Source: Sulfurospirillum sp. 1612 (GTDB lineage: Bacteria; Campylobacterota; Campylobacteria; Campylobacterales; Sulfurospirillaceae). From it: a DNA stretch of 64,000 nt. The stretch spans positions 558,001 through 622,000 of the forward strand of contig NZ_CP140614.1 of NCBI RefSeq assembly GCF_036556685.1, written 5' to 3'. The translations under genes and the position numbers were made by a program. Positions within the stretch are counted from its first letter, which is position 1. Each line of letters starts with the position of its first letter. The notes beneath the pieces were generated by a model. That model worked only from the letters and a program-made list of their open reading frames with translations. It searched no databases and was not told where the DNA came from. Shown in pieces: positions 18,325 to 30,917 of this stretch.

Positions 18325-18735
18325 ATGACACTTTCAGACTATGCTTCAATCGCGACCATAGGAGCATTTTTAGTAACACTAATATCACTAGCATTTTCAG
18401 CAAAACGTTATTTAGATATTAGAACAAGAGAGGAAGAGGTATTTAGATTTAAAACATATCATAGGCTATTAAAGACTATCAGTAAAGGTAGCGATGAAAA
18501 TGGTATTTTAAAATTAGTAAGTCAAGTTGCATATATTTATGAACTCCGAAATTTTCCTGAGTATAAAGATTTGACAAAGAAAACTTTAAATCAATTAAGA
18601 AAAGAATGGTCACATGATGAAGCATCAGATATTAAACCATTACTAAAAGAGGCGATAGATGATACTATTTCCGTTATCGAAGCTTCTTCAAAATATAACA
18701 AAACCTGGAGACAAATAGTTTACTTTAACGGGTAA
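18325..18735 (+). CDS. Cassette gene 1: small one-helix membrane protein, unknown
   Basis: 136 aa. One N-terminal transmembrane helix (residues about 6-27: ASIATIGAFLVTLISLAFSA), then a basic, helical cytoplasmic region. The ATG at 18325 has AGGGA 5 bases upstream; a TTG at 18322 is in frame but too close. The last 12-14 codons and the stop lie inside attC b, so the integron recombination site encodes the C-terminus. No family recognised. Transcription probably comes from upstream (Pc). Confidence 0.75.
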   Translation: MTLSDYASIATIGAFLVTLISLAFSAKRYLDIRTREEEVFRFKTYHRLLKTISKGSDENGILKLVSQVAYIYELRNFPEYKDLTKKTLNQLRKEWSHDEASDIKPLLKEAIDDTISVIEASSKYNKTWRQIVYFNG

Positions 18736-18761
18736 ACTATTTCTCAAGACAACCGTTATGA
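18693..18761 (+). repeat. attC site b
   Basis: 69 nt. R'' ATATAAC (18693-18699), R' GTTATGA (18755-18761). Perfect 11-bp central stem 18713-18723 / 18732-18742 with loop TTTAACGG. Recombination would fall after G18755. The stop codon of cassette gene 1 is in the loop and right arm. Confidence 0.85.
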
Positions 18762-18785
18762 ATATAAATATTCAAGGAGATAATT

Positions 18786-19019
18786 ATGGAAAGTAAATTA
18801 AATTTAAATGCTGGTGATACACTTAAACAGACTGAACATAAAATGAAAGGTCCTATGCAGGAAACCGATATATGGACATATGAAATACTTAATCAAGATG
18901 GAGAAGTTGTTGGTTCAGTAATACACAAAGACCACACAGCAATAAAAGGTTTTCGTAGAACTCAAAGTGTAGAACAAAAAGATAGTTCAGGAAATGTTAT
19001 TGTAAGTACATCGTGGTAG
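18786..19019 (+). CDS. Cassette gene 2: 77-aa protein, unknown
   Basis: 77 aa, hydrophilic, with a beta-rich middle (IWTYEILNQDGEVVGSVIHKDHTAIKGFRRTQSVEQKDSSGNVIVSTSW) and no signal or membrane segment. AAGGAG is 6 bases before the ATG. Such short single-domain proteins of unknown role are typical integron cargo. Its 3' end lies 10 bp before attC c. Confidence 0.7.
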   Translation: MESKLNLNAGDTLKQTEHKMKGPMQETDIWTYEILNQDGEVVGSVIHKDHTAIKGFRRTQSVEQKDSSGNVIVSTSW

Positions 19020-19029
19020 TGATTAAAAT

Positions 19030-19096
19030 TCATACAAGTACTAGGAGAGAAACAAGTAGCCTAGTGGTGACTTATTTCTCAAGGTAACCGTTATGT
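19030..19096 (+). repeat. attC site c
   Basis: 67 nt. Left end degenerate (TCATACAAG in place of yAAC-AA), then ACTAGGAGA; arms 19047-19057 and 19070-19080 (11 bp, one mismatch); right end CTCAAGGTAACC and R' GTTATGT (19090-19096). Confidence 0.8.
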
Positions 19097-19128
19097 GAAC
19101 AAGAAAACTATTATATATGGAGGGAATT

Positions 19129-19587
19129 TTGGAAAAAATAGATTATGAGTATGCAGGTTTTTGGGTTAGAGTTGGAGCAACATTGATAGATGTTGCTTTA
19201 TTATTAATGATTACATTACCGTTAACATTAATGATATATGGAAGCGATACAGTATGGAATAGCGAAGATATGATTTTAGGTCCAGCGGACTTTTTAATAA
19301 ATTATTCTTTGCCATTTTTTGCAACAATAATTTTTTGGATGTATAAATCAGCTACTCCAGGCAAAATGGTTTTACACTTAAAAGTTCTTGATGAAGAAAC
19401 AGGACATAAATTAACAATAGGACAAAGTATTGGAAGATACTTTGCATATATACCTGCTATGCTAATTTTTATGCTTGGGATATTTTGGGTGGCTTGGGAT
19501 AGGAAAAAACAAGGTTGGCATGATAAATTAGCTAGAACTGTCGTTGTGAGAAATAAAAAACGAACAGAAGATGTCAAGTTCACATAA
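19129..19587 (+). CDS. Cassette gene 3: RDD-family membrane protein
   Basis: 152 aa from TTG 19129. RDD domain: YAGFWVRVGATLIDVALLL with the Arg and Asp-Asp-type acidic residue in helix 1, a second hydrophobic segment, the amphipathic SATPGKMVLHLKVLDEETGHKLTIGQSIGRYFAY, and a third helix ending in WAWDRKKQGWHDKLARTVVV. RDD proteins are three-helix membrane proteins, in some cases transport-linked. TTG is preferred because GGAGGG (19119-19124) precedes it by 4-5 bases; the upstream ATG at 19117 overlaps that site. The stop lies inside R'' of attC d. Confidence 0.82.
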   Translation: MEKIDYEYAGFWVRVGATLIDVALLLMITLPLTLMIYGSDTVWNSEDMILGPADFLINYSLPFFATIIFWMYKSATPGKMVLHLKVLDEETGHKLTIGQSIGRYFAYIPAMLIFMLGIFWVAWDRKKQGWHDKLARTVVVRNKKRTEDVKFT

Positions 19588-19649
19588 CAATTACTAGGAG
19601 ATAAATAAGTAGCCTAACGGCGACTTATTTATCAAGATAAACGTTAAAT
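19582..19649 (+). repeat. attC site d
   Basis: 68 nt. R'' ACATAAC (19582-19588), ACTAGGAGA, 11-bp perfect arms 19600-19610 and 19623-19633 with loop AGCCTAACGGCG, right end TCAAGATAAAC, R' GTTAAAT (19643-19649). The cleanest site and a good template for the array's consensus. Confidence 0.88.
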
Positions 19650-19666
19650 GAAAAAGGAAACTTAAA

Positions 19667-19858
19667 ATGTCAAAAACATATAGATTGTTTATCAGTCATT
19701 CATGGGCATATGGAGATGCATATGACAAGGTAGTAAATATGATAACAAGCCAAGGAATTAAATTTTATGATCATTCTGTCCCACGCCATGACCCAATTCA
19801 TACAAATTGAACAGATAAACCACTATTTGGTATAACAAAAACTAGGAAAGAAATATGA
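19667..19858 (+). pseudogene. Cassette gene 4: TIR-like (MTH538/ThsB-like) gene, truncated
   Basis: An open frame of 47 codons (19667-19810) starts RLFISHSWAYGDAYDKVV and ends SVPRHDPIHTN, then TGA. This is the N-terminus of the TIR-like domain once called DUF1863/MTH538, the fold of Thoeris ThsB and related signalling proteins (family motifs FISHSW and the SVP...DPIHTNG stretch). The codon after IHTN should be Gly (GGA); here it is TGA, and reading through gives TDKPLFGI, as the family continues, before the frame ends inside attC e. So the gene has both a nonsense change and a 3' truncation at the recombination site. Full-length relatives are about 130-200 aa. Confidence 0.7.
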
Positions 19859-19900
19859 AGCCAAAGTGCGGCTTCATATTTTTCAAGACACCCGTTAGGT
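19830..19900 (+). repeat. attC site e
   Basis: 71 nt. R'' GTATAAC (19830-19836), AAACTAGGAAAG, perfect 12-bp arms 19851-19862 and 19870-19881 (AAATATGAAGCC), loop AAAGTGC, right end TTCAAGACACCC, R' GTTAGGT (19894-19900). Confidence 0.87.
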
Positions 19901-19913
19901 AATAAGGGAACAA

Positions 19914-20606
19914 ATGCATAATATCGAAGATAATATAATGAATTTTTTTCAGCAGTTAATTAGTGATGAAAATCATAGATACAAATCATGGGAACATTGT
20001 TTTTTGTATTTTTCACAAGATGTTAATCAAATTGACAAAGAAATAGCTTGTTTACATCTATCATTTTATCTTGCAAGTTGGGGTATGTATAGAGGTTCAA
20101 GTTTTCTTCTATGGCAAGATTATCTGATTCATGATAAAGTTGTTGAAGAGATATTAAAGTATAAACATCTGCAAAATATTGATTTTGATAATTTTGATGT
20201 AAAAGATAAAAATTTTAAAGATATTTTTGAGTTATCAAATTTTATAGAAAATTGGTATCCATCCAATATTAAAAATATTCCAGAGAAACCTGACAAAGTT
20301 ATTAATGTGACAGACACTTTATTAACTAAAATTTTATTGGGAACGCTTGGTTGTATTCCTGCATATGATAGATTTTTTAAAGATGGATTAAAAATAAAAA
20401 ATATACAACCATATACTAAATTATCAAAAAAAAGTTTTTTAGAAGTAGTTAAATTTTATCAAGAAAATAAAAATGACTTTTTAATAGTTCAAGAAAACAT
20501 TGAGGAGAAAATTCGAATAAAATACCCTATAATGAAATTGGTTGATATGTATTTCTTTACTCTAAGTTTTGCATCATATAACAAATCATTGGAGAGAAAT
20601 ATTTGA
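19914..20606 (+). CDS. Cassette gene 5a: conserved hypothetical protein
   Basis: 230 aa, soluble, no signal. The segment HLSFYLASWGMYRGSSFLLWQDYLIHDKVVEEIL (about residues 45-78) has the look of a conserved, little-studied family in which a helical core with SWGMYRGS recurs; I know no function. The C-terminal helix-rich part includes LGTLGCIPAYDRFFKDGLK. It starts ATG 14 bp after attC e and overlaps the next gene by 4 bp (TTGA), so the two form one translationally coupled unit in one cassette. Confidence 0.75.
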   Translation: MHNIEDNIMNFFQQLISDENHRYKSWEHCFLYFSQDVNQIDKEIACLHLSFYLASWGMYRGSSFLLWQDYLIHDKVVEEILKYKHLQNIDFDNFDVKDKNFKDIFELSNFIENWYPSNIKNIPEKPDKVINVTDTLLTKILLGTLGCIPAYDRFFKDGLKIKNIQPYTKLSKKSFLEVVKFYQENKNDFLIVQENIEEKIRIKYPIMKLVDMYFFTLSFASYNKSLERNI

Positions 20607-21508
20607 AAGAAGATGAACTTATAGAAAACTTTACAGATATTATTCAACCAAATATTGATGATATAAAAAATATGATTAATAGTACAAACAACAAACTGTT
20701 TACCCTTAATTCCATTCTATTTATCATAGTTCTCGGTGCACTCTTTTTAACTAACCATTTTAACTTACACATTATATTTTTTATTATGACATTATTTATT
20801 TCAGTAATGATTTCTTATCTAGGAAATTATACATTTAACTATGAATATCATGATATTTTAGAAAGAACTATTTTCCCAAAAATTTTAAATATTTTAGTCA
20901 AAGATGGAAGTTTTACTATTAATACACATTTAGAAGAAGATGCTAAAAATTCAGATATTTTTTCTATATATGAATATTTCATTGCTTCTGCAACTATTCA
21001 AAGTAAATGGTCTATCCAATTTGCTTTGAATAACAGGCAGATACATATTTCTTCTACTTATATTGATTTATCAGACATCAATAATCCAGCAGTACCCTTT
21101 TCAGATAAAAACAAAGGTTTATTTATAACTATTGAAAATATTGACTTTTGTAATTCAGAAATTTATATTTTTGAAAATAAATTATTACATTCTATGAAAG
21201 AAGTTTCAAAAATATTAAAAAAAGATTTGACTAATGATAATTCTTTATATGATAAATTTACAGTTGTATCAAAAACCTTAAACAAAGAGTCCAAAAACAA
21301 GATAGTTCAAATACTAAACTTGTTTAATCAAGATGTGTCAATTACACTGAGAAAAAATAAAATGTATATATTTGTACACAAAGAGTTTACTTGTTTTGAT
21401 GCAAATTATTATACAAATGGTAGAATACCTAGTTATTTTGATTATATTGAACTTTTAAAAATTAAAAATTCAATTGAAGAGGTTATAGCAATAACTAAAG
21501 AAGTTTAA
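20603..21508 (+). CDS. Cassette gene 5b: membrane protein, DUF3137-like
   Basis: 301 aa with two adjacent N-terminal transmembrane helices (about 33-50 and 54-72) and a large cytosolic domain. The order 'ILKDGSFTINTHL ... YEYFIASATIQ... FSDKNKGLFITIENIDF ... ILKKDLTNDNSLYDKFTVVSKTLNKESKNKIVQILN ... MYIFVHKEFTCFD' recalls DUF3137 proteins; the assignment is moderate. TTG start with GGAGAG 6-7 bases upstream. The stop lies inside attC f. The partner is the gene just upstream; together they occupy the array's only clear two-gene cassette apart from mazEF. Confidence 0.7.
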   Translation: MKEDELIENFTDIIQPNIDDIKNMINSTNNKLFTLNSILFIIVLGALFLTNHFNLHIIFFIMTLFISVMISYLGNYTFNYEYHDILERTIFPKILNILVKDGSFTINTHLEEDAKNSDIFSIYEYFIASATIQSKWSIQFALNNRQIHISSTYIDLSDINNPAVPFSDKNKGLFITIENIDFCNSEIYIFENKLLHSMKEVSKILKKDLTNDNSLYDKFTVVSKTLNKESKNKIVQILNLFNQDVSITLRKNKMYIFVHKEFTCFDANYYTNGRIPSYFDYIELLKIKNSIEEVIAITKEV

Positions 21509-21569
21509 CAAAACATAGTAGCTAATAAATTATCTAGCGGCAATTATTAGCTATCTTCAGTCGTTAAAC
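21503..21569 (+). repeat. attC site f
   Basis: 67 nt. R'' GTTTAAC (21503-21509), R' GTTAAAC (21563-21569), fully complementary. Arms TAGCTAATAA-A-TT and AATTATTAGCTA pair with one extrahelical base, the feature integrases use to choose the strand. Its first 21 bases (21504-21524) recur exactly in site i at 25518-25538. Confidence 0.85.
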
Positions 21570-21586
21570 ACACAAAAGGGTTAAAA

Positions 21587-22498
21587 TTGAAAAATAAATT
21601 TACTTTATATATAAAAATATTTCTCTTCATATTTTTTATATTTTCTAACGGATATGCAAAAAGCAATACAAATTCACCGAACAATGAACTTGAAATTTTT
21701 AAAGCAATCGATTCAAAAGATTATGAAAAAATTAATAATCTTTTAAAAAATGGAGTAAGCCCTTGTTTAAAAAGAGAGAAAAAATATGAAACATATACAA
21801 ATGTAGATTTTGCTTTTAATCATGCAATTATCACAGGTGATATCAAAATTGTAAAATCTTTTTTACCATATATTGAAAATATCACAAAACCTTCTTGTTT
21901 ATATAATCCTTCTCTCTTTTATGCGATCAAAAATGATGATGTCAAAATGATCCAATTTTTAATAGATAGTGGAGCTGATGTTAATTTTCCAACTAAACTA
22001 TATAGAAAAGAGACACCTATTCAAGAAGCATTATTAGAAAGAAAAATACATTCTGCTCAGAAACTCATAGATAATGGTGCGAGTATAGATAAAAATATAG
22101 GTTTTCAATCATTAGAACTTGCCATAAAAAATTTAAATATTAAAGTTGTACAATTTTTAATTGATAACAAATATGATGTAAACTTTCAAAATAAAGACGG
22201 AAATACTATACTACATCTCATGGCGATGGGGATCGTAGAAAAAAATTTACAAAGTATCGAAACATATATTGAGAAAAAAGAATATATTAAACGATTCCCT
22301 GATACTTATGTAAAAGCTCAAGAACAGGTAAAAAGACTAAAAACTAATTTTAAAAATTATTCTAAAATAGCGAAACTTCTGTTACAAAACGGAGCCGATA
22401 CTAAACTAAAAAATAATGCTGGTAAAACACCATTAATGATTGCCAATGAAAACAATACCGATACAATGCTTGAAGTTTTAAAAAATGCAAAACAATAA
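21587..22498 (+). CDS. Cassette gene 6: secreted ankyrin-repeat protein
   Basis: 303 aa. TTG start 7 bases after AAGGG. A hydrophobic signal sequence (residues 4-24, ending NGYAK) targets it for export. Then ankyrin-type repeats: about residues 36-58, 108-135 (MIQFLIDSGADVN), 142-165 (SAQKLIDNGASID), 175-205 (VVQFLIDNKYDVNFQNKDGNTILHLMA) and 260-295 (IAKLLLQNGADTKLKNNAGKTPLMIA), with a helical insert between the last two. Ankyrin repeats mediate protein binding; a periplasmic partner is unknown. Confidence 0.85.
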   Translation: MKNKFTLYIKIFLFIFFIFSNGYAKSNTNSPNNELEIFKAIDSKDYEKINNLLKNGVSPCLKREKKYETYTNVDFAFNHAIITGDIKIVKSFLPYIENITKPSCLYNPSLFYAIKNDDVKMIQFLIDSGADVNFPTKLYRKETPIQEALLERKIHSAQKLIDNGASIDKNIGFQSLELAIKNLNIKVVQFLIDNKYDVNFQNKDGNTILHLMAMGIVEKNLQSIETYIEKKEYIKRFPDTYVKAQEQVKRLKTNFKNYSKIAKLLLQNGADTKLKNNAGKTPLMIANENNTDTMLEVLKNAKQ

Positions 22499-22509
22499 AT
22501 ACATAAAAT

Positions 22510-22579
22510 GTCTAACAAAAACGAGGAGACCAATAATTTACCCTAGCGGGAAAATTATTGCTCACGATAAACGTTATCT
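22510..22579 (+). repeat. attC site g
   Basis: 70 nt. R'' GTCTAAC (22510-22516), AAAACGAGGAGA, arms 22531-22543 and 22548-22560 (13 bp, one A-A mismatch), loop TAGC, right end CTCACGATAAAC, R' GTTATCT (22573-22579). Confidence 0.87.
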
Positions 22580-22592
22580 AATCAAATACAAA

Positions 22593-22621
22593 TTGACATC
22601 CCAATGTAATTACAATATAAT
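22593..22621 (+). promoter_or_regulatory. Internal cassette promoter and operator of mazEF
   Basis: TTGACA (22593-22598), 17-bp spacer, TATAAT (22616-22621): exact consensus. The spacer holds the perfect palindrome TGTAATTACA (22605-22614), and ATAATTACA repeats over the -10, a likely MazE-MazF autoregulatory site. AAGGAG follows for mazE. Confidence 0.8.
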
Positions 22622-22639
22622 TACACAAAGGAGTTTATT

Positions 22640-22900
22640 ATGACAACACTTACAAAGATTGGAAACTCACAAGGAATTAGAATTCCTAAACCATTAATAC
22701 AACAAGCACACCTTGAAAATGTAAATTTAGAACTAGAAGTTTTAGAAAATGGTTTATTAATAAAACCAATAAATAATACAGATAGAAGCACATGGAAAGA
22801 AAATATTGAAAAAGTTATTTCTAATCATAAAGGAGTTGAAGACGAAGGTGTTTTAGATGACTTACTTAATGATAATGACTTGGAAGACTGGCAATGGTAG
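22640..22900 (+). CDS. mazE: MazE/AbrB-type antitoxin
   Basis: 86 aa. N-terminal swapped-hairpin AbrB/MazE DNA-binding fold (MTTLTKIGNSQGIRIPKPLIQQAHLENVNLELEVLENGLLIKPI) and an acidic C-terminal tail that would block the toxin. The TAG stop overlaps the mazF start by 7 bp. It has its own consensus promoter, so it is expressed regardless of cassette position. Confidence 0.9.
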   Translation: MTTLTKIGNSQGIRIPKPLIQQAHLENVNLELEVLENGLLIKPINNTDRSTWKENIEKVISNHKGVEDEGVLDDLLNDNDLEDWQW

Positions 22901-23220
22901 TAGATATCAAAAGGTTTGAAATACACTTGGTAAAGTTAAATCCTACAGTTGGTTCTGAAATTCAAAAAACAAGGCCATGCATTGTAGTTTCTCCAAACGA
23001 GATGAATGTTTTAAAAACCGTAATAGTTGCACCTATGACCTCTAAAGGTTTTGATTTTATATTTAGACCCAAAATAAAGTTTGACAAGAAAGATGGATTA
23101 GTGTTACTAGATCAGATTAGAACAGTTGATAAAACAAGACTTGTAAAAAAGCTTGGAGATGTTGATACAGCAACATCAAAAGAAATTTCAAAAATGCTTA
23201 TTAATATGTTTGAATTGTAA
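22894..23220 (+). CDS. mazF: MazF/PemK-family mRNA interferase
   Basis: 108 aa endoribonuclease toxin. Hallmarks: VKLNPTVGSEIQKTRPCIVVSPNEMN (catalytic Arg in TRP), VIVAPMTSKG (catalytic Thr), and DGLVLLDQIRTVDKTRL. Length is normal (about 105-115 aa). Together with mazE it may stabilise the array against loss. Confidence 0.92.
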   Translation: MVVDIKRFEIHLVKLNPTVGSEIQKTRPCIVVSPNEMNVLKTVIVAPMTSKGFDFIFRPKIKFDKKDGLVLLDQIRTVDKTRLVKKLGDVDTATSKEISKMLINMFEL

Positions 23221-23510
23221 TCAAATGATAGAAAATATGATATATTACAAAGCGTTCAGTTTAAAACAAAATATACTCAAGAAAATGAAACCGTAAAAAG
23301 CTAAAACAAAAAGGACTTAATGAATATTTTGATACAATGACATCTTTACAGCAAAGAGATAAAAGCATAAAAGAAGCGGTGCAGGGTGGCTATAAGCAAA
23401 GTGAAATCGCAGAGTTTTTGCAACTCTCAGGAACAACGATATCTAAAATTATGGCAAAGCTTAGTCCATGAAAAATAGGTTATTCCCAATACCTAACCCC
23501 TTTTTTATTA
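23221..23510. other. Scrambled stretch between mazF and partial attC h
   Basis: No intact gene. 23254-23297 has a TTTAAAAC ... ACTCAAG ... ACCGTA order faintly like a worn attC; 23301-23471 is a transposase-tail relic; and 23475-23494 repeats, with 18 of 20 bases, a stretch just after yoeB (17753-17772). Confidence 0.4.
23301..23471 (+). pseudogene. Tail of a REP-associated (Y1) transposase, relic
   Basis: An open frame ending SLQQRDKSIKEAVQGGY..QSEIAEFLQLSGTTISKIMAKL-SP resembles the helix-turn-helix tail found at the end of RAYT/Y1 transposases (RDxAIxEAxxxGxYxxxEIAxHxGLHxSTVSRIV). Nothing of the HUH nuclease domain (HxH and Tyr) is present upstream. A small stand-alone DNA-binding ORF from ATG 23337 (44 aa) is possible but less likely. 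Confidence 0.5.
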
Positions 23511-23530
23511 GCTCATTTTAACCGTTAAAC
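23511..23530 (+). repeat. attC site h, right half only
   Basis: GCTCATTTTAACC-GTTAAAC keeps the right-end pattern and R' (23524-23530). ACCTAAC (23491-23497) could be an R'' remnant, but no arms lie between, so the left half was lost, probably with the event that left the transposase tail. Confidence 0.55.
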
Positions 23531-23552
23531 CAACACAAAGGAATATAGTAAA

Positions 23553-25522
23553 TTGCAAAGATCTTATTACTCCAATACAATTAGTAAATTTATTACAGAG
23601 AATACAAACACAATTCTTGGTGAACTAGCACGACATCACAATCATGCCTTAGAGGATTTACAAAGAAATGCATGGATAAAACAAATTGATATATTAAAAC
23701 AAGCATTTTACAATTATAAAGATGGTCATATTTTCTTTGAATTTGCAATTCCTAGAATGGGAAAGCGTGTTGATAATATTATAATTATTAATGATTCAAT
23801 ATTTGTTATTGAATTTAAAGTTGGTTCAACAACATATGACAATAATGCGATAGAGCAAGTTATAGACTACTCACAAGACTTAAAAAACTTTCATGAAGGT
23901 AGTCATACTCAAAAATTATTTCCCATACTTATTGCAACTGAAGCAAAAAGTTTTGAAAGTAAAATTGAGCCATTACAAGATAAATTATATAAACCTCTTT
24001 TTGCAAATAAAAACTCTATTTTAAGCACAATAGAAGAATGTCTAAAGTTAGAACGAGTAGATAATATAGATCCGTTAATATGGGAAAACTCAATCTATAA
24101 ACCAACTCCAACTATTATTGAAGCAGCTCAAGCATTATATAAAGGTCATAATGTTAAAGAGATTTCTAGATCAGATTCTGGTGCTATAAATTTGTCTATT
24201 ACAACAGATAAAATTAACCAAATTATAAATAGTTAGAAACAAATAAGAAATCAATTTGTTTTATTACAGGGGTTCCAGGTGCAGGCAAAACACTAGCAGG
24301 CTTAAATATTGCAAATGAAAGGATGAATATTGATGAAAACGAACATGCAGTTTTCTTATCAGGAAATGGTCCACTAGTTGATGTATTAAGAGAAGCTCTC
24401 ACAAGGGACGAAGTTAATAATGCAAAAAAGAAAGGGCAAAAGCTAACAAAAAGAGAGGCTGCAATTAAAACACATGCTTTTATTCAAAATATTCACCATT
24501 TTCGCGATGACTCATTAGGTACAGCTAAAGCACCAATTGAAAAAGTAGTAGTATTTGATGAAGCTCAAAGAGCTTGGAATCAAGGGCAAACAAGCTCTTT
24601 TATGAAAAGAAGAAGAGGACTAGATAATTTTGAGTCATCAGAACCAAGATTCTTAATTGATGTAATGAATAGACATCAAGACTGGTCTACAATCATTTGT
24701 TTAGTAGGTGGCGGACAAGAGATAAATACTGGTGAGGCAGGATTAGAAGAATGGATTAGTTCGTTAAAAAATCATTTTCATGACTGGAATATATATTTAT
24801 CAAATTCGATAATAGAAGATAAAAACTATTTGAAAGATAATGCATTAAAAGAGTGGTTACACGAAAATGCCACTATAGATAAAAACTTACACTTATCCGT
24901 TTCAGTTAGATCTTTTCGCTCAGAGAAGCTATCCGACTTTATTCACTCTATTTTAGATATTGACACAACAAAGGCTAGACGTTTATATAATGACTTTTTA
25001 AAAAATGATTATCCTATATTGGTTACAAGAGATTTTGAAAAAGCAAAAAAATGGTTAAAATCAAAAGCAATTGGAAGTGAAAGAAGTGGTGTAGTTGCAT
25101 CATCTGGAGCATATCGTTTAAGGCCATTTGGGATAAATATAAAAAATCAGATTGATGCTCCCGTTTGGTTTTTAAACAATAAAGATGATATTAGATCTTC
25201 GTATTTCAATGAAGAAGTGGCAACTGAATTTGACATTCAAGGACTTGAACTTGATTGGACATGTGTATGTTGGGATGGAGACTTTTATTTTCACAACAAC
25301 CAATGGATGTTTAGAAAATTCAAGGGTACAAAATGGCAAAATATAAATAAAGAGATCATAAAAAATTATTTATTGAATGCTTATAGAGTTTTACTTACGA
25401 GAGCCAGACAAGGGATGATTATATTTATACCTAATGGATCATTAGATGACCAAACAAGGTTACCAGAATTTTATGATGAAACCTATGAATATATTAGGAA
25501 GATCGGTATACAAGAGCTTTAA
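23553..25522 (+). pseudogene. Cassette gene 8: nuclease-helicase (PD-(D/E)XK + DUF2075), frameshifted
   Basis: Two adjoining frames make one protein of about 655 aa. Frame 1 (TTG 23553 to TAG 24236, 227 aa) holds a PD-(D/E)XK-type site: Asp in GKRVDNIIII and E-x-K in VIEFKVG. Frame 2 resumes at 24237 with KKSICFITGVPGAGKT (Walker A), then VVVFDEAQRAW (Walker B), a GGGQEINTGE segment and a C-terminal LLTRARQGMIIFIP motif VI: a DUF2075 (schlafen group-3-like) helicase core. One missing base near 24233-24237 splits them and the Walker A precedes the next ATG (24323), so no active fusion is made unless the frame shifts. Similar architectures act in phage defence (Nhi-type, from memory). Confidence 0.8.
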
Positions 25523-25568
25523 CAAAACATAGTAGCTACTATCTATCTCAAAAGTAGAACCGTTGATG
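25517..25568 (+). repeat. attC site i, terminal and degenerate
   Basis: Left end CTTTAAC plus AAAACATAGTAGCTA is identical to site f over 21 bases; the middle is only a TAGTAGCTACTA palindrome, and the right end CTCAAAAGTAGAACC-GTTGATG is worn. It marks the array's distal edge. From 25569 to 25637 I see no gene, only a minus-strand open stretch of about 30 codons with no start. Confidence 0.55.
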
Positions 25569-25637
25569 TTCCCAAATATATCAATAAAACTCATAGCCTC
25601 ATGATAATCTTTGATAAGTTCATCGATACATAAAAAA

Positions 25638-26714: not shown

Positions 26715-28193
26715 ATGAATCTATCAAAATCCCTCTACACCAAAGCCATCCAATGCCCCAAATCCTTATGGCTCAAAAAGTACAAGCCAGAGGTTTTAAC
26801 CCCGCCAGATGCCAGTGCACTTGCACGGTTTGAGACGGGCAATGTCGTGGGCGATTTGGCGTGTGAGTTGTTCCCAGGTGGTCGAGAGATTCCTTATGAT
26901 TCACGGGATTTTAAAAGCATGGCACAACGGACGCAAGCATACTTGGAAGAGGGCGTTGAAAACATCTATGAGGCGACATTTATCTATGATGGTATCGTGG
27001 TGATGGTGGATATCCTGCGCCAAACGCCTGAGGGCTTGGCGCTTTATGAGGTGAAGAGTTCCACCGATGTGAAGCCAATCTATCTACATGATGTCTCCAT
27101 CCAGCTTTATGTTTTGGAATCTCTTGGCTATACGGTACGTGCTTGTCATGTCGTGCATATCAATTCTGGTTACGTGCGAGATGAAATGCTAGAGTTGGAC
27201 AAGCTCTTTATGGTGGTGGATGTGAGCGATGCGGTGCAACAGATGCAAGCCTCGATTCCACAAAAGTTAGAGGAGTTTAAAACATACCTAAGCGATAGTC
27301 TCCATGAACCTGACATCGACATCGGCAAACACTGCAATCATCCCTACGAGTGCGATGCAAAGGCGTATTGCTGGAAAACCCAGCGCCATATTCCAGAGTA
27401 TAGCGTCTTTAATATCTTCAATCTCGGCAGTAAAAAACAACAACAACTCTATGCCCAAAACATCATCATGATAGAAGATATTCCCGATGATTTTGCGATG
27501 ACATCTATCCAAAAACAAAAGGTTGACAACTGGAAAATGCAGCGCACATTTATAGATCATGATGCGATTGCTGAGTTTTTGGAAACACTGAACTATCCGC
27601 TATATTATCTAGATTTTGAGACTTTTGTGCAAGCTATCCCTTTGTGGCGTGGTGTGAGTCCCTACCAACAGATACCGTTTCAGTATTCACTTCATATAGA
27701 AGATGCTGATGGTACTTTGGCACATCGAGAGTTTTTGGCGCAATCTGGAAGTGACCCAAGACGTGCTTTGGCAGAGAAGTTGGTGGCAGACATACCGTGT
27801 CATGTCGATGTGTTGGCTTATAATATGAGTTTTGAAAAACGGGTGATTGCTTCACTGGCTACGCAGTTTGAGGATTTGTCAGAACCGCTGATGTGCCTCC
27901 ATGACAATATCAAAGACTTGATGATACCCTTTCAAAAAGGACACTACGCCACTCCGCTTATGAAGGGTAGCTACTCGATCAAATATGTCTTACCAGCCCT
28001 CGTCCCACAGATGGAGCAAGCCTACAAACAATTAGAAGGCATCCAAAATGGCGGCGATGCCATGAATGCTTTCGCATCGCTACATGACAAGAGTGAACAA
28101 GAGCAAAAAAAAGTGCGCGCGCAGTTGCTAAAATACTGCGAACTCGATACTCTGGCGATGGTGCGGGTACTGGGGAAATTAAAAAAGATATAG
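26715..28193 (+). CDS. DUF2779 protein: Fe-S PD-(D/E)XK nuclease plus DEDD-type exonuclease
   Basis: 492 aa. N-terminal Cas4/AddB-like half: first Cys in KAIQCPKSLW (C14), E-x-K site in LYEVKSS (about 116-118), and the three-Cys cluster HCNHPYECDAKAYCW, together a likely [4Fe-4S] site. C-terminal half: RNase-H-like exonuclease with D/E in YYLDFETF, LAYNMSFEKRVI and D in YCELDTLAMVRVL, plus the family string SYSIKYVLPALVP. So two nuclease folds in one chain. Codon use is GC-richer than the helicase 8 bp downstream, a hint that the two had different histories. Not recognised as a named defence system. Confidence 0.85.
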   Translation: MNLSKSLYTKAIQCPKSLWLKKYKPEVLTPPDASALARFETGNVVGDLACELFPGGREIPYDSRDFKSMAQRTQAYLEEGVENIYEATFIYDGIVVMVDILRQTPEGLALYEVKSSTDVKPIYLHDVSIQLYVLESLGYTVRACHVVHINSGYVRDEMLELDKLFMVVDVSDAVQQMQASIPQKLEEFKTYLSDSLHEPDIDIGKHCNHPYECDAKAYCWKTQRHIPEYSVFNIFNLGSKKQQQLYAQNIIMIEDIPDDFAMTSIQKQKVDNWKMQRTFIDHDAIAEFLETLNYPLYYLDFETFVQAIPLWRGVSPYQQIPFQYSLHIEDADGTLAHREFLAQSGSDPRRALAEKLVADIPCHVDVLAYNMSFEKRVIASLATQFEDLSEPLMCLHDNIKDLMIPFQKGHYATPLMKGSYSIKYVLPALVPQMEQAYKQLEGIQNGGDAMNAFASLHDKSEQEQKKVRAQLLKYCELDTLAMVRVLGKLKKI

Positions 28194-28201
28194 GACCCTT
28201 G

Positions 28202-30892
28202 ATGAATATCGACAAATACTTAATATTGATCAACGATAAGGATAAAACACAAGAGATTGAGAAGATTGATGTTGAAGCAAACAAAATAAAAATTAAATAC
28301 ACTACGAACAATAAAATCTATTTATACAATAAACACAAGGTTTCAATACTACAAGATCCTAAGCCAATTGATCCTAATGCTTATTTGATTTATTTAGGAG
28401 AGGTGTGTTTGTTTAATATTTCTAAAATATTAGATTTTAAAACTCATCTGAGAATCTTTCATGATAATGGGAAAGTTTTTACTTACAATAAAGCGAATCT
28501 ACGTTTTGAAAAAAATGCTCTTATGTATGTAAATACAAAAAATACACTGCTATATTTAAAAGAATTGGCTAAAAGTATAAAAAATGAAGAGAATGATTTT
28601 TTAGATAAGCAATATGAAAAGATTGATTATATTAGCGAAGATAGTATCTTTGCAAAATATTTACGACGTGAACCTATCCAAAAAAATAATTTTAATCGGG
28701 TAAAAATATTTCCATTTGGATTGAATTTGAGTCAAGAGATGGCGGTAAATCAGGCATTGACGAACCAAATGAGCATTATCGAGGGACCACCAGGCACAGG
28801 AAAAACTCAAACTATTTTGAATATCATTGCAAATTTAATGATGAATAATAACACAGTTGCTGTTGTTTCCAACAATAACGCAGCCATTCAAAATATTTTT
28901 GATAAGTTAGATGCCAAAGATTTATCTTTTTTTACGGCGATGCTCGGCAATAAAGATAATCAAGAAGCTTTTTTTCTAAATCAAAATGAAGATTATCCTA
29001 AAATGCAAAATATTTCTAAAACAGATTTCGTTCTTGAGCAAAAAAAGCTTGAAGAGGATATCGAACATATAAAAACTTTATTACATGCTCACAATCAGCT
29101 TGCAAAACTCTCGCAAGAATTAGATTCTCTGCTAATAGAACAAAAATATTTTATGAGATTGTATACCCTCAAAGCTATTAGTATTGATGATGAGCAGTAT
29201 TTTCTAAATTACACTTTAGAAGAGATAATATCATTCTGGGCTGACTTGGAAGATTTGCAAAGTCAAAACAAAACAGTCAATCTTTTTTTTAAAATCAAGG
29301 CTATATGGAAATATAGACTATTTCATTTTTCTATTTATTCGCATCCTATAGATGATATTATTATATTTTTACAAAAATGTTTTTATATTATTAGAGCAAG
29401 GACGTTAAACAAGGAGATTTTAGAATTAAAAAACCTTTTGAAGAATTCTAACTTTGAAGCGCTACTCGAACAACATAGAACGAAATCAATGGCATTATTT
29501 AAGTCATATTTATCGAAAAGATATGATTATAAAATGAAAAGAACAAGATTTGATAGTGATATTTTGTGGAAAGATTTCAATAGCTTTATCAAAGAATATC
29601 CCGTGATTTTAAGTACGACACATTCTTTGAAAAATTGTACAGGAAAAAATTTTTTATACGATTATCTGATTATAGATGAAGCGTCACAGGTTGATATTGT
29701 TGCCGGTGGACTTGCCTTGTCTTGTGCCCGAAATGTTGTTGTTGTTGGTGATTTAAAGCAACTGCCTCATATCATACCTCGTGAATTAAAAAATCAGATT
29801 GACAGTATTTTTGATCATTATTCTTTAAATCCCTCCTATCATTACGCAAACAATTTACTTTTATCTGTTTCAAAATTATTTAATGAAGTGCCAAGAACAT
29901 TGTTAAAAGAGCACTATAGGTGCCATCCAAAAATTATAGATTTTTGTAATAAGAAATTTTATAATAACGAGTTAATTATCCTAACAAAAGATACAAAGAA
30001 GACGTCTTCGCCTCTGATTTTATATAATACAGCAGAGGGAAATCATGCGAGGGGAAAATATAATCAGCGTCAAATTGATATTATTAAAAACGAAATATTA
30101 ACACGTTTACATGTTGATAGTTTGGGAATTATTTCGCCTTTTCGCAAGCAAATCGATAAATTATGCGAAGAAATTAATCAAAACGCAAATATCGAAATTG
30201 ATACAGTGCACAAATACCAAGGAAGAGAAAAAGATGTGATTATTATCACAACAGTTGTTGATCAGGAAAACGAGTTTGCCGATGATCCAAATTTGCTAAA
30301 TGTAGCTATTTCAAGAGCGAAAGATCAACTTTATGTTGTCATATCTGATGATCAAAAAAATAAAAATATGAAAGATTTGGTTTCTTATATAAAATATAAT
30401 AATTTTGAGATCAAACAAAGTAAAATTTACTCTATATTTGATCTACTATATCAGAGTTATGCTCCCGTTTTGACAAAGTATCGCTCTAAAATAAAAAATA
30501 TTTCTAAATACAAATCAGAAAATTTGATGAATATTATAATCGAAAATATATTGAATAATGAGCATTATAATTATTTGGACAAAGTTCTTAATTTCCCGTT
30601 GAATCATTTAATCCAAGATACCAGTATCTTAAATGAAAAGGAATTGAAATTTGTACAAAATCCTTTAACTCATATAGATTTTTTGATATATAATAAAATC
30701 TGCAAAGAAGCTGTACTGGCGGTCGAAGTAGATGGCGTTGCTTTTCATGAAAATAATCCCATCCAGTTAGAAAGGGATAAATTAAAAGATCTCATTTTAG
30801 AAAAATATAATATTCCAATGATACGATTTGCCACCAATGGCAGTGAAGAGGAAAAAAAATTACTTCGCAAGTTACAAGAGATAAATGCTTAA
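28202..30892 (+). CDS. SF1 (Upf1/Dna2-like) helicase with C-terminal nuclease-like domain
   Basis: 896 aa. AAA_11/AAA_12-type helicase: motif I EGPPGTGKTQTI (about 196), a helical insertion of about 250 residues, motif II YLIIDEASQVD (about 498), motif III VVVGDLKQLP, and motif VI LNVAISRAKDQLYVVIS (about 695). The last about 110 residues (HIDFLIYN..AVLAVEVDGVAFHEN..QLERDKLKD..YNIPMIRF) look like the Vsr/DUF2726-type PD-(D/E)XK fold. The start is ATG 28202 (AGGA 6 bases upstream), 8 bp after the DUF2779 stop. Acts on DNA or RNA; pairing with a two-domain nuclease suggests a defence or repair unit. Confidence 0.88.
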   Translation: MNIDKYLILINDKDKTQEIEKIDVEANKIKIKYTTNNKIYLYNKHKVSILQDPKPIDPNAYLIYLGEVCLFNISKILDFKTHLRIFHDNGKVFTYNKANLRFEKNALMYVNTKNTLLYLKELAKSIKNEENDFLDKQYEKIDYISEDSIFAKYLRREPIQKNNFNRVKIFPFGLNLSQEMAVNQALTNQMSIIEGPPGTGKTQTILNIIANLMMNNNTVAVVSNNNAAIQNIFDKLDAKDLSFFTAMLGNKDNQEAFFLNQNEDYPKMQNISKTDFVLEQKKLEEDIEHIKTLLHAHNQLAKLSQELDSLLIEQKYFMRLYTLKAISIDDEQYFLNYTLEEIISFWADLEDLQSQNKTVNLFFKIKAIWKYRLFHFSIYSHPIDDIIIFLQKCFYIIRARTLNKEILELKNLLKNSNFEALLEQHRTKSMALFKSYLSKRYDYKMKRTRFDSDILWKDFNSFIKEYPVILSTTHSLKNCTGKNFLYDYLIIDEASQVDIVAGGLALSCARNVVVVGDLKQLPHIIPRELKNQIDSIFDHYSLNPSYHYANNLLLSVSKLFNEVPRTLLKEHYRCHPKIIDFCNKKFYNNELIILTKDTKKTSSPLILYNTAEGNHARGKYNQRQIDIIKNEILTRLHVDSLGIISPFRKQIDKLCEEINQNANIEIDTVHKYQGREKDVIIITTVVDQENEFADDPNLLNVAISRAKDQLYVVISDDQKNKNMKDLVSYIKYNNFEIKQSKIYSIFDLLYQSYAPVLTKYRSKIKNISKYKSENLMNIIIENILNNEHYNYLDKVLNFPLNHLIQDTSILNEKELKFVQNPLTHIDFLIYNKICKEAVLAVEVDGVAFHENNPIQLERDKLKDLILEKYNIPMIRFATNGSEEEKKLLRKLQEINA

Positions 30893-30895
30893 GGC

Positions 30896-30917
30896 AAAAG
30901 GGGATCTCCCCTTTTTA
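30896..30917. terminator. Bidirectional intrinsic terminator
   Basis: AAAAGGGG-ATCT-CCCCTTTT hairpin with A-run on one side and T-run (TTTTT) on the other, placed between the converging helicase and DEAD-box genes. Confidence 0.85.

What the first reader, a model, noticed from the sequence alone, without database searches (positions are those of the whole stretch)
26715..30892. Two-gene nuclease plus helicase unit beside the integron: a candidate defence system
A DUF2779 protein with a Fe-S PD-(D/E)XK half and an RNase-H-like half is followed 8 bp later by a large SF1 helicase with its own nuclease-like tail and a 250-residue insertion. Three potential nuclease sites and one motor in one operon, in an accessory island, is the composition of nucleic-acid-targeting defence. 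I do not recognise it as a named system. The two genes differ in base composition, suggesting recent assembly.
Basis: inference. Interest (0 to 1): 0.72.

Follow-up and report, generated by a model that had tools for sequence, protein, structure and literature searches.

The report
Two defence-island nucleases sharing one operon
Two intact bacterial genes for DNA- or RNA-cutting enzymes, one of them with a helicase motor, sit in one operon and keep company with anti-virus genes, but across bacteria they usually live apart, so this looks like a local pairing of two separate defence-type genes rather than a new two-part system.

Summary
A DUF2779 protein (26715-28193, +) is followed 8 bp later by an SF1B helicase (28202-30892, +). 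Structure models and invariant residues support three nuclease sites (Cas4-like Fe-S PD-(D/E)XK, DEDD-type 3'-5' exonuclease, DUF2726/Vsr-like tail) and one UPF1/IGHMBP2-like motor.

The helicase is an accessory gene, and its Campylobacterota relatives sit among known defence genes far more than control stretches do. But the two genes are not a dedicated system. Of 397 Campylobacterota genomes, 32 carry the helicase, 89 carry DUF2779, only 4 carry both, and 3 have them adjacent. In 80 further helicase loci DUF2779 adjoins it once. Trees require repeated gain or loss of the pairing. The GC contrast recurs in all four pairs, so it does not show recent assembly.

Best reading: two self-contained, separately mobile defence-type enzymes that repeatedly meet, mostly in a Campylobacterota locus marked by an accessory SbcCD-like pair and exchangeable defence cargo. 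The helicase-nuclease family is widespread (643 of 5,426 complete E. coli genomes), has no name in PADLOC or NCBIfam, and is the more interesting half. Anti-phage function is inferred, not shown.

The parts
26715..28193 (+). DUF2779 gene, 492 aa: Cas4-like Fe-S PD-(D/E)XK nuclease fused to a DEDD-type 3'-5' exonuclease
   Evidence: Pfam PF11074; model and fold matches; invariant catalytic residues
26715..27395 (+). N-terminal PD-(D/E)XK nuclease domain with four cysteines (C14, C207, C213, C219), residues 1-227
   Evidence: VIA-align Z 14.2 to Cas4 7mi5/7mi4; D99, E112, K114, Q130 and C207/213/219 invariant, C14 nearly so
27591..28190 (+). RNase H-like DEDD exonuclease domain, residues 293-492
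   Evidence: VIA-align Z 15.2 to the DNA polymerase alpha exonuclease-like domain; D300, E302, D401, Y474, D478 invariant
28194..28201 (+). 8-bp intergenic spacer; AGGA (28192-28195) overlaps the stop codon and lies 6 nt before the helicase ATG
   Evidence: sequence; equally short spacers in G135 and L174
28202..30892 (+). SF1B helicase-nuclease gene, 896 aa from ATG
   Evidence: AAA_11/AAA_12; UPF1/IGHMBP2-like model
28526..30445 (+). helicase core, residues 109-748
   Evidence: VIA-align Z 28.1 to IGHMBP2 4b3g, Z 21.6 to Dna2 5eax; GPPGTGKT and other motifs invariant
29018..29521 (+). predicted helical insertion between N-terminal RecA motifs, about residues 273-440, poorly conserved
   Evidence: model secondary structure; alignment
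30668..30880 (+). C-terminal DUF2726 / Vsr-like PD-(D/E)XK tail, residues 823-893
   Evidence: PF10881 in 36 of 36 homologues; D826, E842, H849, Q855, K862 invariant
30896..30916 (+). hairpin AAAAGGGG-ATCT-CCCCTTTTT directly after the helicase stop, probable terminator of the operon
   Evidence: read directly; not called by the consensus scanner

Best explanation
Two self-contained nucleic-acid-degrading enzymes of the defence-island type happen to share an operon here. The helicase gene encodes a single-protein helicase-nuclease: a UPF1/IGHMBP2-like SF1B motor (by family 5'-to-3') loads on single-stranded phage nucleic acid, translocates or unwinds, and feeds it to its own DUF2726/Vsr-like PD-(D/E)XK tail. 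The DUF2779 gene encodes a Cas4-like Fe-S nuclease joined to a DEDD 3'-5' exonuclease, a two-site end-degrading enzyme. It is a habitual part of defence loci, often near an accessory SbcCD-like pair, and works with whatever neighbours it has. Shown: gene structure, folds by prediction, conserved active sites, accessory distribution, defence neighbourhood of the helicase, lability of the pairing. Inferred: polarity, substrate, nuclease activity, anti-phage action, co-transcription.
For: Helicase beyond the phylum sample: 80 loci from many phyla without any conserved partner; DUF2779 adjacent only in L174 and three genes away in L204. Phylum: 32 helicase genomes, 89 DUF2779 genomes, 4 with both against 7.2 expected. 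Trees: the four paired genes fall in four places on the DUF2779 tree and need four changes on the helicase tree; close relatives L015/L016 and L018/L019 differ in pairing. Defence context: 77 helicase neighbours match 67 PADLOC families at 1e-20, including type I restriction genes, type IV restriction, GajA/GajB, HamA, mads and PDC-S06; 77 control proteins from arbitrary positions in the same phylum match 16, which look like housekeeping paralogues. DUF2779 loci: an SbcC-like gene within the fetched flank in 26 of 70, with Ppl, Mokosh MkoA, dGTPase, SIR2-HerA and Gabija beside it. E. coli homologue: 643 of 5,426 genomes, chromosomal, apparently a single gene, and in one case about 4 kb from a TerB/ATPase/helicase trio. 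Active sites conserved.
Against: No phage test exists. Three loci (window, G135, L174) keep the same order with spacers of about 6-8 bp, which is tighter than island cohabitation alone predicts. Within the Campylobacterota helicase clade of eight rows 4 are paired. A repair role has not been excluded for either protein.
Confidence: 0.6

Rival explanations
1. A dedicated two-gene system: a split Dna2-like machine in which the helicase supplies single strands to the Fe-S nuclease and exonuclease of the DUF2779 partner.
For: Same order and 6-8 bp spacing in window, G135 and L174; neighbours also in G281. The combination Fe-S RecB-type nuclease plus SF1B helicase is that of Dna2 (helicase model Z 21.6 to Dna2), and COG2251, a related family with the same nuclease-exonuclease layout, is often fused to AAA domains (PMC3985635).
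Against: 28 of 32 helicase genomes and 85 of 89 DUF2779 genomes lack the other; reversed order in G281; pairing changes between closely related helicases; the helicase already has its own nuclease tail in 36 of 36 homologues.
Confidence: 0.2
2. DNA repair or end-processing genes, not defence: both proteins serve recombination or broken-fork repair in the host.
For: Fold relatives are Dna2, Cas4 and polymerase proofreading domains; SbcCD-like neighbours of DUF2779.
Against: Sporadic distribution, broken copies in some genomes (G186, G261), and clear excess of restriction and other defence genes beside the helicase compared with control stretches.
Confidence: 0.13
3. An RNA-targeting defence enzyme: the helicase tracks on phage or host RNA and the tail cuts RNA on activation.
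For: The closest solved relatives are RNA helicases or RNA/DNA helicases (IGHMBP2, UPF1, Sen1).
Against: The tail belongs to the PD-(D/E)XK/Vsr-like group, mostly DNA endonucleases (family knowledge), and Dna2, a DNA enzyme, is also close.
Confidence: 0.07

Closest known systems
Mokosh (MkoA/MkoC)
   Same: SF1 AAA_11/AAA_12 helicase; best PADLOC match of the helicase (MkoC 1.1e-50, residues 282-716)
   Different: No PLD nuclease or kinase domain; tail is DUF2726; 896 aa against a 1,136-position model
Hhe (DUF4011 helicase with Vsr-like nuclease)
   Same: SF1 helicase and a Vsr-like nuclease tail in one anti-phage protein
   Different: No DUF4011; NCBIfam Hhe score 96.8 against a cut-off of 2000
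Dna2 and COG2251/TM0106-type nuclease-helicases
   Same: Fe-S RecB-type nuclease plus SF1B helicase; COG2251 also carries a DEDD exonuclease domain (PMC3985635)
   Different: Here two polypeptides, found apart in most genomes, and the helicase has a second, different nuclease
Cas4
   Same: Fold and cysteines of the DUF2779 N-terminal half
   Different: Fused to a DEDD exonuclease; window protein has no PADLOC Cas4 hit
Nhi-like single-gene nuclease-helicase (PDC-S41 / SLFN-g3 helicase)
   Same: Single-protein helicase-nuclease defence logic; a split copy lies just upstream at 23553-25522
   Different: Different helicase family (SLFN-g3) and an N-terminal rather than C-terminal nuclease

Membership tests
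Pfam DUF2779 (PF11074) | profile match over the cut-off | tested here: met
   150.8 bits against a cut-off of 23.3
Mokosh | SF1 helicase of the COG1112 type | tested here: met
   AAA_11/AAA_12 and partial MkoA/MkoC matches
Mokosh | PLD nuclease domain in the system | tested here: not met
   no PLD family among Pfam matches of 36 helicase homologues or of the DUF2779 protein
Hhe | DUF4011 and full-length score over the cut-off | tested here: not met
   96.8 bits against 2000; no DUF4011 match
Nhi | DUF2075/SLFN-g3 helicase domain over its full length | tested here: not met
   only 24.7 bits over residues 190-247
Dna2 / COG2251 nuclease-helicase | nuclease and helicase in one chain | tested here: not met
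   two ORFs with an 8-bp spacer
Dna2 / COG2251 nuclease-helicase | SF1B helicase core and Fe-S RecB-type nuclease both present | tested here: met
   fold matches and invariant residues
Cas4 | cas gene neighbours (cas1, cas2) | not tested
   no CRISPR search was made; the neighbouring genes that were identified are not cas genes
dedicated two-gene system | the two genes occur together in most genomes that have either | tested here: not met
   4 of 32 and 4 of 89 genomes; 1 adjacent in 80 loci
anti-phage system | protects against phage | not testable with these tools
   needs plaque assays

The most novel reading that the evidence does not exclude
In Campylobacterota an accessory Mre11-Rad50-like (SbcD-SbcC) pair together with the DUF2779 nuclease-exonuclease forms a shared DNA-end-sensing and degrading platform into which different effector modules (the helicase-nuclease of this window, Gabija, SIR2-HerA, Mokosh, Ppl, dGTPase) are swapped. 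The window's pair would be a detached piece of such a platform.
Probability: 0.17. Interest if true: 0.7.

Novelty: new variant of a known kind. Interest (0 to 1): 0.45.

Why it matters
The helicase-nuclease is an unnamed single-gene family found across Bacillota, Bacteroidota, Spirochaetota, Pseudomonadota and Campylobacterota, and in about 12% of complete E. coli genomes. It can therefore be tested directly in laboratory E. coli. DUF2779, still of unknown function, gains a structural identity (Cas4-like plus proofreading-type exonuclease) and a defence-locus context with an accessory SbcCD pair. The case also shows that tight spacing and GC contrast in one genome do not establish a system.

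Tried and rejected
Recent assembly inferred from GC: rejected, since DUF2779 is richer in GC than the helicase in all four pairs (45.0/28.5, 51.0/31.7, 27.1/22.9, 32.7/22.7) and richer than its surroundings in nearly all of the loci printed. Helicase as a core gene: rejected. A conserved partner of the helicase other than DUF2779: none found among neighbours within three genes in 80 loci. Phage-borne copies: a viral-contig scan gave six loci, all partial matches. Literature: no paper in the library describes DUF2779 in phage defence (6 hits), nor was a DUF2726 helicase of this kind apparent (2 hits, titles and abstracts only). Sequence search of DUF2779 against solved structures gave nothing useful. 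Foldseek against PDB found Cas4 but only weakly (1.3e-4). No consensus promoter scan result was used, because sites were not specific (29 found, 19 expected). Whole-genome download was not available. Searches for the window's transporter and antiporter genes in genus relatives gave no match, so the empty site could not be compared.
Full report
Observation. The two ORFs exist and are intact: DUF2779 at 26715-28193 and the helicase at 28202-30892 (ATG; a TTG one codon upstream is also possible), both + strand. The spacer is 8 bp. AGGA overlaps the stop codon and lies 6 nt before the ATG, so coupled translation is plausible (inference). A hairpin with a T run follows the helicase stop at 30896-30916 (read directly), and the next genes are convergent. 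Pfam gives DUF2779 (2.9e-44) for the first protein, and AAA_11, AAA_12 and DUF2726 for the second.

Anatomy of the first protein. An AlphaFold model from 36 homologues has mean pLDDT 94. VIA-align matches residues 1-227 to Cas4 (Z 14.2) and residues 293-492 to the exonuclease-type domain of family B DNA polymerases (Z 15.2). Invariant residues include D99, E112, K114, Q130, C207, C213, C219, D300, E302, D401, Y474 and D478; C14 and E374 are nearly invariant. A published survey of the RNase H-like superfamily places DUF2779 among the presumed 3'-5' exonucleases, notes a PD-(D/E)XK-like DUF83 domain in it, and describes the related COG2251 as often fused to AAA domains (PMC3985635).

Anatomy of the second protein. 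The model (pLDDT 88.6) has an N-terminal region of strands (1-105), a UPF1/IGHMBP2-like core (109-748; Z 28.1 to IGHMBP2, 27.5 to UPF1, 21.6 to Dna2), a helical insertion at about 273-440, and a C-terminal DUF2726 tail. DUF2726 is matched in 36 of 36 homologues, with D826, E842, H849, Q855 and K862 invariant. All of this is prediction and conservation; no activity is shown.

Are they a unit? In 397 Campylobacterota genomes the helicase occurs in 32 and DUF2779 in 89. Four genomes have both; 7.2 are expected if independent. In three of the four (the window, G135, G281) the genes are neighbours; in G132 they are 77 kb apart. Window, G135 and L174 share order and a spacer of about 6-8 bp; G281 has the opposite order with 0.8 kb between. 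So when both are present they are linked more than by chance, yet neither depends on the other. On the DUF2779 tree the four paired genes need four label changes, which starred branches force; on the helicase tree they need four, of which three are forced. Close relatives L015/L016 and L018/L019 differ in pairing. The pairing is labile.

Composition. GC is 45.0% against 28.5%. The same direction is seen in the other three pairs (51.0/31.7, 27.1/22.9, 32.7/22.7), and DUF2779 is richer in GC than its surroundings in nearly every locus printed. The contrast therefore looks like a property of the two families and does not date the assembly.

Defence context. I compared 77 neighbours of the helicase in 20 Campylobacterota loci with 77 proteins from fixed arbitrary positions (600 kb) in 20 genomes of the same phylum. 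PADLOC families at 1e-20: 67 against 16. The helicase set includes type I restriction and methylation subunits, a type IV restriction enzyme, GajA/GajB, HamA, mads proteins and PDC-S06. The control set consists of matches that look like housekeeping paralogues (cysteine desulfurase-like, FtsH-like, UvrD-like, my inference). The count is of families, not loci, and the two sets of genomes overlap only partly, so it is a rough control. In the wider set of 80 neighbours from other phyla, scanned without a control, I saw single cases of Zorya, type III and type IV restriction, DISARM/Druantia-type methylases, BrxA and others.

E. coli. A homologue from plasmid pB39_V (37% identity) is found in 643 of 5,426 complete E. 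coli genomes, all on chromosomes, annotated only as 'AAA domain-containing protein'. In the three strains looked at it stands in front of a PAPS-reductase/IbrB pair in stretches with many IS elements, and in one strain about 4 kb from a TerB / ATP-binding / DEAD-helicase trio that resembles Shango (the name Shango rests on my own knowledge of its gene content).

DUF2779 context. In 26 of 70 DUF2779 loci an SbcC-like gene lies in the fetched flank; the typical order is SbcD - SbcC - cargo - DUF2779 - cargo. This SbcC is itself accessory: 52 of 397 genomes at 1e-40. The cargo includes Ppl, MkoA, dGTPase, a DpdF/GajB-like 1.6-kaa helicase, PDC-S06, and SIR2-HerA and Gabija. Two of the four DUF2779-helicase pairs (G135, G281) lie in such loci, and L174 starts with the end of an SbcC gene. 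The window's own genome has an SbcCD-dGTPase locus elsewhere, at 1557537, without DUF2779. A platform function for SbcCD plus DUF2779 is a hypothesis; a simple insertion hotspot would give the same map.

Mechanism. The most likely reading is two independent enzymes: a single-protein helicase-nuclease that degrades invading nucleic acid while translocating, and an end-directed nuclease-exonuclease that works beside various defence modules. Shown: genes, folds by model, active-site conservation, distribution, context. Inferred: substrates, polarity, phage restriction, co-transcription. The split-Dna2 rival keeps 20% because of the tight and recurrent spacing.

Comparison. The helicase is not Mokosh (no PLD), not Hhe (no DUF4011; 96.8 bits against 2000), and not Nhi (SLFN-g3 match only local). 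The DUF2779 protein has no PADLOC hit; 16 of 36 homologues hit a Cas4 model weakly. I therefore call the helicase a new variant of the helicase-nuclease kind of defence candidate, and the pair a local arrangement.

Noticed in passing
23553-25522: A Nhi-like nuclease-helicase gene (PADLOC candidate PDC-S41; 2.4e-83 and 1.3e-183 for its two parts) is split into two ORFs in different frames just before its Walker A motif, so it looks frameshifted.
   Followed up: partly
18719-25569: attC-like repeats separate the small AT-rich ORFs, and the last one follows the Nhi-like gene, which therefore looks like a gene cassette. No integrase-like ORF was seen in the window and no gene in the genome passes the integron-integrase cut-off: a CALIN-like array.
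   Followed up: partly
22640-23220: MazE-like and PemK/MazF-like toxin-antitoxin pair inside the array.
   Followed up: no
L095:2157-11789, L098, L103, L107, L154, L074, L077, L174: Accessory SbcD-SbcC-like pair with exchangeable defence cargo (Ppl, Mokosh, Gabija, SIR2-HerA, dGTPase, PDC-S06), often with DUF2779; present in 52 of 397 Campylobacterota genomes.
   Followed up: partly
L008:7495-11418 and L009:7495-11417: On Aliarcobacter plasmids DUF2779 is followed after 18 bp by a 1308-aa MkoC-like helicase (split into two ORFs in L009), and an MkoA-like kinase-helicase lies upstream in L008: another helicase next to DUF2779.
   Followed up: no
L174:8548-9993: The DUF2779 copy paired with the helicase in Sulfuricurvum STA_65 starts MTLSKSLWLKKY and so appears to lack the stretch that holds Cys14, which might break the Fe-S site.
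   Followed up: no
L189, L223: Two helicase relatives lie near the same 600-aa protein family (cluster of L189|6 and L223|3, start 'IPEIQRPFVWD', DUF262-like in look).
   Followed up: no
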